Of a stretch of DNA of 64,000 bases, positions 2,416-4,757 are shown one piece after another. The number at the start of each line of letters is the position of its first letter. Positions within the stretch are counted from its first letter, which is position 1. Source of the stretch: an uncultured Bacteroidota bacterium. GTDB taxonomy: Bacteria > Bacteroidota > Bacteroidia > B-17B0 > Aurantibacillaceae. The stretch is taken from positions 1 to 64,000 of the forward strand of contig CAILKE010000021.1 of the NCBI GenBank assembly GCA_903834765.1, given 5' to 3'. Made by a program: the position numbers and the translations under genes. The notes beneath the pieces are model-generated. The model had not been told where the DNA came from, did not search any database, and worked only from the letters and a program-made list of their open reading frames with translations.

Positions 2416-2441
2416 TCTGTTTAGTAAGTGATGTAATTTAG
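2416..2441 (+). promoter_or_regulatory. Promoter of structured RNA A
   Basis: TCTG at 2416-2419 and, 14 nt later, TAATTTAG at 2434-2441 (TAnnTTTG with one mismatch). The -7 box ends exactly 4 nt before the GTTATAA at which homology to RNA B begins. RNA B has the same offset, which is the main reason to believe this promoter. Confidence 0.5.
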
Positions 2442-2445
2442 TAAT

Positions 2446-2931
2446 GTTATAATTAAGGAAATTGTTCTTAAAACATTAGTTAGGCGAGACACTATAAATT
2501 GCAATAGATTTAGAAAACTTGCAGACTCAAAGACAACGGAAGTTGATACACTAAAGAGTGAAACCCCTTTTAGTGTTAGGTTGATGGCAATGCTTGCATT
2601 GCTCAATTCAAAGAAACGATTATGGTCGTTTGGATTAGGAAGAGTTGAAATATGGTATAGGTTTTTTACGTTAAGTGACACAGCAATTTGGCATAACGGA
2701 AAAGTACTCAAAGGCAGTAACTGCTCCATGCAAGGTCAAACATGCATGGTAGATTGAAAGAGGAATAACTATTTTAAAAGATAGCTAAACCTGTTAAATC
2801 CAAGGTCGACTTTAGGTCGGTTTCTATATTTCTCCTAAAATTATAAAAGAAGGAATACAAAGCATAAGTGTTTTAACACAATTAAGCTTGTAGGAAAACG
2901 GAAAGCAGGCACGCAAGTGTCTGCTTTTTTT
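2446..2931 (+). ncRNA. Structured non-coding RNA A (candidate new family, long copy)
   Basis: About 486 nt with no credible ORF, running from a promoter-like box to an intrinsic terminator. Visible helices: TAAG/CTTA with a bulged G (2454-2457/2467-2470); GCGAG/CTTGC (2484-2488/2518-2522) enclosing TAAAT/ATTTA (2495-2499/2508-2512); CAAC-GGAA-GTTG, a GNRA-capped stem (2534-2545); ACACTAAA/TTTAGTGT (2548-2555/2569-2576); CAATG-CTTG-CATTG (2588-2601); AAACGA/TCGTTT around a TTATGG loop (2614-2631). Every one has a counterpart in RNA B (4397-4674), several with compensatory changes. After about 2690, RNA A has roughly 200 nt absent from B, including CCATGCA/TGCATGG and a second ACTCAAAGGCA word. 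I do not recognise it as tmRNA, RNase P, SRP or 6S RNA. The function is unknown. Confidence 0.75.
2902..2931 (+). terminator. Intrinsic terminator of RNA A
   Basis: An 11-bp stem (AAAGCAGGCAC/GTGTCTGCTTT, one G-T wobble) closed by a GCAA tetraloop and followed by a run of T. The core CAGGCAC/GTGTCTG matches CAGGCGC/GCGCCTG of RNA B with compensatory differences. Confidence 0.85.
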
Positions 2932-3011
2932 ATAAACGATTATTATTTGCAAATAGTAATTTGCTTAACTACTAGGTATATGTTTTTAATAAAATAAATT
3001 TTTCGATGTGT

Positions 3012-3197
3012 TTAATAATTCGATATTAACCAATACAAGGTAATTACAATAACGAGGATAGCAACAACAATAAAAATTATATCGGGTCTACCAGTAGATT
3101 CTGTTAATTTTTTTTCAGCTTTATCTAAACCTAACACATCTTTTTCTAAAAATTTTGGCATGGACCTTTCTTTTTTATTTTTGCCTAATGAACTCAT
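3012..3197 (-). CDS. Small single-pass membrane protein (61 aa)
   Basis: 61 residues, with a charged N-terminal half (KNKKERSMPKFLEKDVLG) and one strong hydrophobic segment at about 40-57 (IIFIVVAILVIVITLYWL). The predicted topology is one membrane span with a very short C-terminal tail. An internal Met at residue 13 (MPKFLEKD) is an alternative start, giving 49 residues. It lies 93 bp downstream of the universal stress protein gene in the same direction, so the two are probably co-transcribed. I recognise no family. The operon context suggests a stress-related membrane role, but that is inference only. Confidence 0.6.
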   Translation of the reverse strand: MSSLGKNKKERSMPKFLEKDVLGLDKAEKKLTESTGRPDIIFIVVAILVIVITLYWLISNY

Positions 3198-3290
3198 GAT
3201 TTTTATTTTTTTGATGTTATTGACATGTATTTAGATTTCTATCTATTCGCCAACAAAATGGAATTAACAGAGTAGCTATTATTAATCTCT

Positions 3291-4181
3291 TTATTGGCCT
3301 ATTGATTGATTAATAATTTTCTTTGGCGCTTTTTTAGTAACGTTAGAATTATGATGGTGCAGTATAAGAAGAGGAATAGTGGCGTGGTTAGCCATTTCAT
3401 TGGTCCAGCTTGTTTTCCAAATGGTTTCAGGAAATTTTGTACCATGTGATATCATCGATAACATATCTAGCTTTTGCTTTTTTATATATTGATTAAGCCC
3501 ATCCCTCACATTAGAATCGCTATATACATGCATTGAAATTTTTTTGTAATTCAAGTGCTTCTTAGTTTTATCAACTATTTTTTTAAGTAGTTCTTCTGAA
3601 TTATAAGTTGCTAAATCTTGAATATACACAAACGTAATTTCAGTATGGTGTTTTTTAGCGAAGGAAACTAATTCTGTTTCGGCAAACGAATGAATAGTTT
3701 CTAAATTAGTAGCCATAGCCATGTGATGAATTTCTTTAAATTTTGCTTTTGGTGGAACAGCAATCATGGTGCATGCCGTATTATTAATTACTTGTGAGGT
3801 TGTGCTTCCTACTAATGCTCTCATAACGGCTCCTTGCCCTGTAGTGCCCATGATGATCAAATCTATTTTATTTTTTTTCACATATTCAATAATATTATCC
3901 GAAGCCATACCTGGTTGAGTTTCCCACTTAGGCTTAATGTTTGGAAATATTTTAGAAAGAGTGGCGATGAGTTTTTTCATTTTTAGTTCAGCGCCTTCCT
4001 TTGCTTCTTGTTTACCAATATGAACGACTGAAGTAAAGGGTATGACTAATTTACCTGTTGGATTTTGATATGTATGAAACAGTATGATTTTTGATTTTGT
4101 TTTCTCAGCATAAGCAACTGCATATTTAACTGCGTTGTATGCATTTTTGGAAAAGTCTGTTGGAACAAGTATGGATTTCAT
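3291..4181 (-). CDS. Universal stress protein, two tandem UspA domains
   Basis: 296 residues holding two UspA (PF00582-type) domains, about 1-143 and 150-277. The first begins KSILVPTDFS and has the complete ATP-binding motif G-2x-G-9x-G-S (G112, G115, G125, S126). The second domain ends in IPLLILHHHN and has a degenerate motif, so probably only domain 1 binds ATP. Double-domain Usp proteins are common in Bacteroidota and are linked to starvation, redox or low-oxygen stress. The gene is followed by the 61-aa membrane protein gene. The pair is bracketed by the two homologous structured RNAs on the opposite strand (2446-2931 and 4397-4674). Confidence 0.9.
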   Translation of the reverse strand: MKSILVPTDFSKNAYNAVKYAVAYAEKTKSKIILFHTYQNPTGKLVIPFTSVVHIGKQEAKEGAELKMKKLIATLSKIFPNIKPKWETQPGMASDNIIEYVKKNKIDLIIMGTTGQGAVMRALVGSTTSQVINNTACTMIAVPPKAKFKEIHHMAMATNLETIHSFAETELVSFAKKHHTEITFVYIQDLATYNSEELLKKIVDKTKKHLNYKKISMHVYSDSNVRDGLNQYIKKQKLDMLSMISHGTKFPETIWKTSWTNEMANHATIPLLILHHHNSNVTKKAPKKIINQSIGQ

Positions 4182-4365
4182 ATTCTTAATTAGTTTTGTA
4201 TGTGTCTAAAGTATGAGTATTACATGGCATCTTTAGTAAGGTTAGTCTTTGCTAAATGTGATTTTACTCACTAACATTCAATGAACCAAATTGATGTTAA
4301 GATTATTCATTTCGCGATTTGAATATTTGTAAAAGATCATCTAATAAGATGACTAGGTTCATCTT

Positions 4366-4392
4366 TTTGATAGCATCGATGGTTTACCTTTG
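4366..4392 (+). promoter_or_regulatory. Promoter of structured RNA B
   Basis: TTTG at 4366-4369, then 15 nt, then a perfect -7 box TACCTTTG at 4385-4392. The spacing is slightly shorter than usual. Four nucleotides separate the box from GTTATAA at 4397, exactly as in copy A. A CATCT-AATA-AGATG hairpin lies just upstream (about 4338-4352). Confidence 0.6.
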
Positions 4393-4396
4393 CCCT

Positions 4397-4674
4397 GTTA
4401 TAAGTAAGGAAACAATTCTTAAACATGAGTTTGATGAGGTACTCTAAATGGTATAGATTTAAAAAACCCTCAAACTCAAAGGCAACGGAAGTTGATGCAG
4501 TAATAGGTGCGATTCCTCAAGCTGCTAGGTTGATGGTTATGTTCGCATATTTCAGCCCAATGTAATGGCTACGGTCATTAGGTTTAGAATCAGTTAAAGA
4601 TACATAGTTTTGTCATGTTTAGTCACAAGAGCTAGTATTTTAAAAAAGGCAGGCGCACCAGCGCCTGTTTTTTT
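4397..4674 (+). ncRNA. Structured non-coding RNA B (candidate new family, short copy)
   Basis: About 278 nt and homologous to RNA A. Helices: TAAG/CTTA with a bulged G (4405-4408/4418-4421); TGAGG/CCTCA (4435-4439/4468-4472) enclosing TAAAT/ATTTA (4445-4449/4457-4461); CAAC-GGAA-GTTG (4483-4494); GCAG/CTGC (4497-4500/4522-4525) with inner AGG/CCT; TATG-TTCG-CATA (4538-4549); TAATGG/TCATTA around CTACGG (4563-4580). Relative to A, the TGAGG/CCTCA, GCAG/CTGC and TAATGG/TCATTA pairings change on both sides, and the capping loop switches from CUUG to UUCG, both stable tetraloops. The longest primary match is the block around GCAACGGAAGTTGAT. There is no ORF. The biological role is unknown. Confidence 0.8.
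4650..4674 (+). terminator. Intrinsic terminator of RNA B
   Basis: CAGGCGC-ACCA-GCGCCTG followed by seven T. The stem is preceded by six A and GG, so it could also work for minus-strand transcripts. It is homologous to the RNA A terminator, with two pairs changed compensatorily. Confidence 0.9.
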
Positions 4675-4680
4675 ATACCA

Positions 4681-4757
4681 ATAAGTGAGTTGGCTCGCTT
4701 GATAATATTATGGTAATTACAACAAAAAACTCAGCAGGTTTTGCTGAGTTTTTTATG
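4681..4757 (+). other. Hairpin plus second intrinsic terminator after RNA B
   Basis: Two further hairpins follow RNA B within 80 nt: AAGTGAG-TTGG-CTCGCTT (4683-4700, one wobble pair) and the terminator AACTCAGCA-GGTTT-TGCTGAGTT with a T run (4728-4754). The second has A/T tracts on both sides and could stop transcription in either direction. It may be a back-up terminator for RNA B or the end of a separate small transcript; no gene lies between. Confidence 0.6.

What the first reader, a model, noticed from the sequence alone, without database searches (positions are those of the whole stretch)
2446..4674. Two homologous structured non-coding RNAs with covarying helices: a candidate undescribed RNA family
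The + strand units 2446-2931 and 4397-4674 share short conserved words (GTTATAA-TAAGGAAA; ATAGATTTA; ACTCAAAG-CAACGGAAGTTGAT; GGTTGATGG) and a common order of hairpins. The helices change with compensation: GCGAG/CTTGC becomes TGAGG/CCTCA; the ACACTAAA/TTTAGTGT stem becomes GCAG/CTGC; CAATG-CTTG-CATTG becomes ATG-TTCG-CAT; AAACGA/TCGTTT becomes TAATGG/TCATTA with a conserved TAYGG-type loop; and the terminator stem CAGGCAC/GTGTCTG becomes CAGGCGC/GCGCCTG. Both units contain the invariant GNRA hairpin CAAC-GGAA-GTTG. Neither strand encodes a plausible protein. Paired substitutions in several independent stems are what selection on RNA structure looks like. I cannot place it among tmRNA, RNase P, SRP, 6S or known riboswitches.
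Basis: partly seen in the sequence, partly recalled or inferred. Interest (0 to 1): 0.88.

Follow-up and report, generated by a model that had tools for sequence, protein, structure and literature searches.

The report
Undescribed two-lobed structured bacterial RNA
The window carries two copies of a large folded RNA gene, one about 490 and one about 280 bases long, that matches no RNA family in Rfam 15; relatives in several other Bacteroidia keep the same fold although much of the sequence has changed, so it is very probably a real RNA, whose job is still unknown.

Summary
U1 (2446-2931) is a full-length member of an RNA family with no match in Rfam 15; U2 (4397-4674) is a shorter paralogue that keeps only the first half. 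A model built from U1 and U2 alone found homologues in other Bacteroidia: in all 11 copies in 8 genomes of 3 genera. Each copy starts 4 nt after a Bacteroidota -7 promoter box and ends in a terminator-like hairpin. The ~425-500 nt RNA has two five-hairpin lobes enclosed by a 5'-3' helix. Paired substitutions support the fold: 32 of 54 lobe-A pairs and 17 of 38 lobe-B pairs change on both sides, reached by 0 of 500 shuffles. The lobes share a repeated two-hairpin module; one relative carries a deletion between the two modules. Distribution is patchy (3 of 20 genomes in the genus, 4 of 395 sampled in the class). No phage, plasmid, transposon, CRISPR or retron link was found. Best reading: a stand-alone, trans-acting RNA that acts as an RNP scaffold or self-assembles, in the style of OLE/ROOL/GOLLD but with no detectable relation to them. 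That function is inferred, not shown.

The parts
2434..2441 (+). -7 promoter box of U1 (TAATTTAG, one mismatch to TAnnTTTG), at -12..-5 of 2446
   Evidence: box position as reported for flavobacterial sigma-A in PMC9723704
2446..2931 (+). U1: full-length two-lobed RNA (486 nt)
2447..2454 (+). P0 5' strand (UUAUAAUU), pairs with 2839-2846
   Evidence: 96.2% of cells paired; slid controls at most 53%
2461..2648 (+). U1 lobe A: closing helix P1 with hairpins P2-P6
2478..2545 (+). P2-P3 module of lobe A (includes CUCAAAG and the GNRA hairpin CAAC-GGAA-GUUG)
2649..2832 (+). U1 lobe B: closing helix P7 with hairpins P8-P12
2752..2819 (+). P11-P12 module of lobe B; matches positions 32-99 (P2-P3) of the lobe-A model R2 (17.4 bits)
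2839..2846 (+). P0 3' strand (AAUUAUAA)
2857..2891 (+). P13, 3' hairpin between P0 and the terminator
   Evidence: read from the sequence; hairpin in single-sequence folds of homologues
2902..2931 (+). intrinsic-terminator-like hairpin of U1
   Evidence: sequence; equivalent hairpin in all homologues
4385..4392 (+). -7 promoter box of U2 (TACCTTTG, exact)
4397..4674 (+). U2: lobe-A-only paralogue (278 nt)
4412..4605 (+). U2 lobe A (P1-P6)
4642..4674 (+). intrinsic-terminator-like hairpin of U2
   Evidence: sequence

Best explanation
U1 and U2 belong to an undescribed family of stand-alone structured RNAs of Bacteroidia. Each is read from its own sigma-A type promoter, starting at the first base of the conserved block, and ends at its own terminator. 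The full-length RNA folds into two five-hairpin lobes held together by the 5'-3' helix P0; the lobes share a homologous P2-P3 / P11-P12 module. Most likely it works in trans as a scaffold: the repeated modules, with their conserved CAAAG-type joining segments, present two equivalent binding faces, either to two copies of one protein or to each other and to other copies of the RNA. A lobe-A-only form (U2) can persist. Shown by computation: the RNA unit, its fold, strand, predicted ends, internal repeat and patchy distribution. Inferred: transcription, trans action, the scaffold role. A stress role is only hinted at (a universal stress protein gene lies between U1 and U2; BON-domain genes lie near all three copies in genome G304). 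The confidence given is for the scaffold or assembly role; that this is a real, structure-selected RNA unit not in Rfam 15, I hold at about 0.97.
For: Homologues: R1, built from U1+U2 only, hits five loci at 72.7-139.3 bits, E 2e-15 to 9e-32; more copies with R2. Covariation: lobe A 91.4% of cells paired vs 76.9+/-1.4 shuffled, 32 of 54 pairs change on both sides vs 13.9, 0/500 shuffles, slid controls 35-49%; lobe B 95.6% vs 89.3+/-0.8, 17 of 38 pairs vs 6.4, slid controls 27-36%; P0 96.2%, slid controls at most 53%. RNAalifold on an unfitted MAFFT alignment gives P0, P2-P5, P7 and P9-P12, 39 of 105 pairs with changes on both sides, but not P1, P6 or P8. Single-sequence folds of L061 and L112 give the two-lobed shape unaided. 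Strand: 84 G-U against 11 A-C at paired columns. Unit: exact -7 box in 8 of 11 copies and one mismatch in 3, always at -12..-5; an exact box occurs at 0.0008 of positions in the window. Different loci share little outside the unit and its upstream region, so it behaves as an independent gene. Internal repeat: the lobe-A model hits lobe B in 8 of 9 full-length copies and the lobe-B model hits lobe A in 5.
Against: No transcript was observed and no partner protein is known. The two-faced scaffold role rests on architecture alone. Patchy distribution does not fit a core housekeeping role. Individual internal-repeat hits are weak (17-30 bits) and overlap the scores of chance loci that had been picked for a shared word (16-22 bits). 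Stress-gene neighbours were not seen at the L061, L062, L076, L115 and L117 loci.
Confidence: 0.5

Rival explanations
1. A base-pairing regulatory RNA: unpaired joining segments and loops pair with target mRNAs, and the fold mainly gives stability.
For: Stand-alone unit with its own promoter box and terminator; single-stranded joining segments (CAAAG type) are among the most conserved parts.
Against: At ~425-500 nt with about 100 pairs and a 5'-3' closing helix it is far more structured than ordinary base-pairing sRNAs; the repeat architecture is not needed for pairing. Targets were not searched.
Confidence: 0.2
2. An RNA-only homo-oligomer like ROOL or GOLLD (nanocage or dimer), possibly of phage origin. 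This is the RNA-only, phage-derived special case, kept apart from the general scaffold reading above.
For: Similar size class and ornate multi-branched fold with pseudo-repeats; ROOL, GOLLD and OLE assemble without protein (PMC12286853).
Against: No Rfam match. No hit in phage or plasmid records; word scans of viral contigs gave four chance loci, none matching the models. No tRNA island: at most one or two tRNA genes or fragments in 6.6-15.5 kb.
Confidence: 0.15
3. RNA part of a mobile or defence system (retron, omega RNA, bridge RNA, tracrRNA).
For: Patchy distribution, several copies per genome, the single unit found at unrelated loci.
Against: No reverse transcriptase, TnpB, IS110 or Cas gene recognised among the flanking genes examined; only some neighbours were scanned with Pfam.
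Confidence: 0.07
4. A cis-acting leader (riboswitch-like) for the gene downstream.
For: Structured RNA followed by a terminator-like hairpin.
Against: No same-strand gene follows U1 or U2 closely; the genes at 3012-4181 are on the other strand. Homologues have unrelated downstream genes, several of them convergent.
Confidence: 0.04
5. Not a functional RNA: duplicated or decaying DNA with fortuitous folds.
For: L119 carries an internal deletion; U2 lacks lobe B.
Against: Covariation far above shuffles, fixed promoter-box spacing, terminator hairpin kept with wholly different sequence in L061.
Confidence: 0.02

Closest known systems
OLE, ROOL and GOLLD large ornate RNAs
   Same: Hundreds of nucleotides, multi-branched, stand-alone, functions unclear; OLE is linked to stress adaptation (abstract of PMC10898510).
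   Different: No covariance-model match in Rfam scans; different architecture (two lobes with a homologous module); here chromosomal in Bacteroidia with no phage or tRNA-island link found.
CsrB- and 6S-type regulatory RNAs (from general knowledge)
   Same: Stand-alone trans-acting RNAs with repeated motifs (CsrB) or a long closing helix (6S).
   Different: No Rfam match; no run of GGA hairpin loops; not one long hairpin.
tmRNA and RNase P RNA
   Same: Similar length class and a 5'-3' closing helix.
   Different: No tmRNA by ARAGORN, no Rfam match; absent from most related genomes.

Membership tests
Any Rfam 15 family | cmscan score at or above the family's gathering threshold | tested here: not met
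   gathering; relaxed; only tRNAs, elsewhere in the loci, pass
OLE / ROOL / GOLLD | match to the family covariance model | tested here: not met
   to my knowledge these families are in Rfam; no match
ROOL / GOLLD | encoded in phages or prophages, often near tRNA islands | tested here: not met
   prophage context was not searched exhaustively
OLE / ROOL / GOLLD | RNA-only homo-oligomer | not testable with these tools
   needs native gel, mass photometry or cryo-EM
tmRNA | tRNA-like domain and tag ORF | tested here: not met
Riboswitch or cis leader | conserved downstream gene on the same strand | tested here: not met
Family defined here (models R1-R3) | lobe A model match | tested here: met
   U1 198.7 bits, U2 190.7 bits (both in the training set of R2); independent copies found by R1
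Family defined here (models R1-R3) | lobe B model match and P0 | tested here: met
   U1 171.1 bits (in the training set), P0; U2 lacks both

The most novel reading that the evidence does not exclude
A previously unknown class of large bacterial RNA built from two lobes that share a duplicated hairpin module, acting as a self-contained RNA machine or scaffold, with natural single-lobe versions that would let the function of each lobe be separated.
Probability: 0.4. Interest if true: 0.88.

Novelty: new variant of a known kind. Interest (0 to 1): 0.75.

Why it matters
Large, strongly structured bacterial RNAs without a known job are few, and those studied so far have been surprising. This one has an unusual internally duplicated architecture, natural full-length, one-lobe and deletion variants in related genomes, and clear predicted ends, so its fold and function are directly testable. 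It also suggests that such RNAs remain unlisted in environmental Bacteroidia.

Tried and rejected
BLAST-type search of 100 relatives with U2 gave only chance fragments outside the own genome; the covariance model was needed. The first exact word scans found nothing; a looser word found 49 genome stretches, of which 5 held the RNA by model score. Phage, plasmid and viral-contig searches: nothing. The low-score Rfam hits near 4724-4753 are a plain hairpin flanked by A and T runs. The likeness of ACTCAAAGG to a stretch of 16S rRNA was considered and set aside as chance. A phylum search with the lobe-B model found only the own genome among 395; with that many genomes only six candidates per genome were scored, so absence is weak evidence there and in the class search. 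The companion small RNA of L111/L117 was not found in the own genome. The 2017 survey of 224 candidate RNAs was not held, so for its families I rely on Rfam.

Full report
What was checked. They are 71% identical over about 236 nt, have no other copy in the 3.6-Mb genome, and both fold better than all dinucleotide-preserving shuffles. Of the 29 pairs of P3-P6 drawn on U2, 28 are kept in U1, five with two-sided changes.

Known families. No Rfam 15 family reaches its gathering score in the window; in the homologous loci only tRNAs elsewhere do; no relevant hit appears at relaxed thresholds. ARAGORN finds no tRNA or tmRNA near U1/U2.

Finding relatives. A model built from U1 and U2 alone (R1) found a third copy in a genome of the same genus (72.7 bits). 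A degenerate word from the P3 region gave 49 stretches in 84,980 species genomes, five of which R1 confirmed at E 2e-15 or better. A seven-sequence lobe-A model (R2) then found carriers in 3 of 20 genomes of the window's genus, 4 of 36 of a second genus, one of them with three copies, and one genome of a third genus. In total: 11 copies (U1, U2; three in G304; one each in G376, G394, G471, G492, G015 and G005) in 8 genomes. L072/L111, L089/L113, L062/L116, L061/L114 and L076/L118 are pairs of names for the same copies. G005 and G015 carry it at the same locus, G005 in a deleted form.

The unit. Every copy begins 4 nt after a TAnnTTTG box (8 exact, 3 with one mismatch; an exact box occurs at 0.0008 of positions in this window). 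PMC9723704 places this box at -12 to -5 in flavobacteria, so the first base of the conserved block is the predicted +1. Every copy ends in a terminator-like hairpin; in L061 its sequence is wholly different. Flanking genes differ between loci. Beyond the unit and its upstream region, the shared stretches are a short block downstream in L111 and L117, BON-gene segments within G304, and the common locus of L118 and L119, apart from a few short matches.

The fold. P0 joins the 5' end to a segment about 400 nt downstream. Lobe A is closed by P1 and carries P2-P6. Lobe B is closed by P7 and carries P8-P12. A further hairpin, P13, and the terminator follow. Lobe A: 91.4% of cells paired, 32 of 54 pairs with two-sided change, no shuffle of 500 as high (this alignment was fitted to the U1/U2 model and leans towards it). 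Lobe B, on an unfitted alignment with a structure derived from it: 95.6%, 17 of 38 pairs. P0: 96.2%. On the unfitted alignment A6, RNAalifold recovers P0, P2-P5, P7 and P9-P12 with 39 of 105 pairs changed on both sides; it misses P1, P6 and the variable P8. L061 and L112 give the two-lobed shape from single sequences. G-U outnumbers A-C 84 to 11 at paired columns, so the plus strand of the window is the RNA. ORFs are not conserved.

Internal repeat. The lobe-A model matches lobe B in 8 of 9 full-length copies (17-30 bits), and the lobe-B model matches lobe A in 5 (22-30 bits), three of these confined to the P2-P3 module. Each hit alone is weak; their recurrence at the matching place is the argument. 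In G005 (L119) a deletion joins the two modules. U2 keeps lobe A at nearly the score of U1 (190.7 against 198.7 bits) with an exact promoter box, so the one-lobe form looks maintained.

How it works. A promoter and terminator of its own, the lack of a linked downstream gene and a large closed fold point to a trans-acting RNA. The duplicated module suggests two equivalent binding faces. I commit to a scaffold or self-assembling RNA (0.5), with base-pairing regulation, a phage-type RNA-only oligomer and a mobile or defence partner as rivals. Neighbouring stress genes (Usp in the window; BON near the three G304 copies) are a hint only.

Limits. No expression data; few carriers; the larger genome searches scored few candidates per genome, so the counts of carriers are lower bounds; absence from the held paper library and from Rfam does not prove that nobody has described it.

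Noticed in passing
L111 complement of about 7291-7170; L117 about 4325-4440: A second small conserved unit (~115 nt) just downstream of the large RNA, with its own TACCTTTG box, hairpins and terminator; no Rfam hit in L072, which covers the same stretch, and not found in the window's genome.
   Followed up: partly
L119 7760-7976 (G005:C41:65759): Natural internal deletion joining the P2-P3 module of lobe A to the P11-P12 module of lobe B, at the same locus as the full copy in G015.
   Followed up: partly
L118 5388-6197 and L119 8775-9576: A 98% identical ~800-bp segment with two short ORFs, in opposite orientation, next to a tRNA-Gln gene in L118 and a tRNA fragment in both; may be a small integrative element carrying a toxin-antitoxin-like pair (judged by eye).
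   Followed up: no
L111, L113, L112/L123: A BON-domain protein gene lies within about 0.9 to 7 kb of all three RNA copies in G304; partly explained by segment duplication.
   Followed up: partly
window 4722-4755: Inverted repeat flanked by A and T runs that could serve as a two-way terminator downstream of U2.
   Followed up: no
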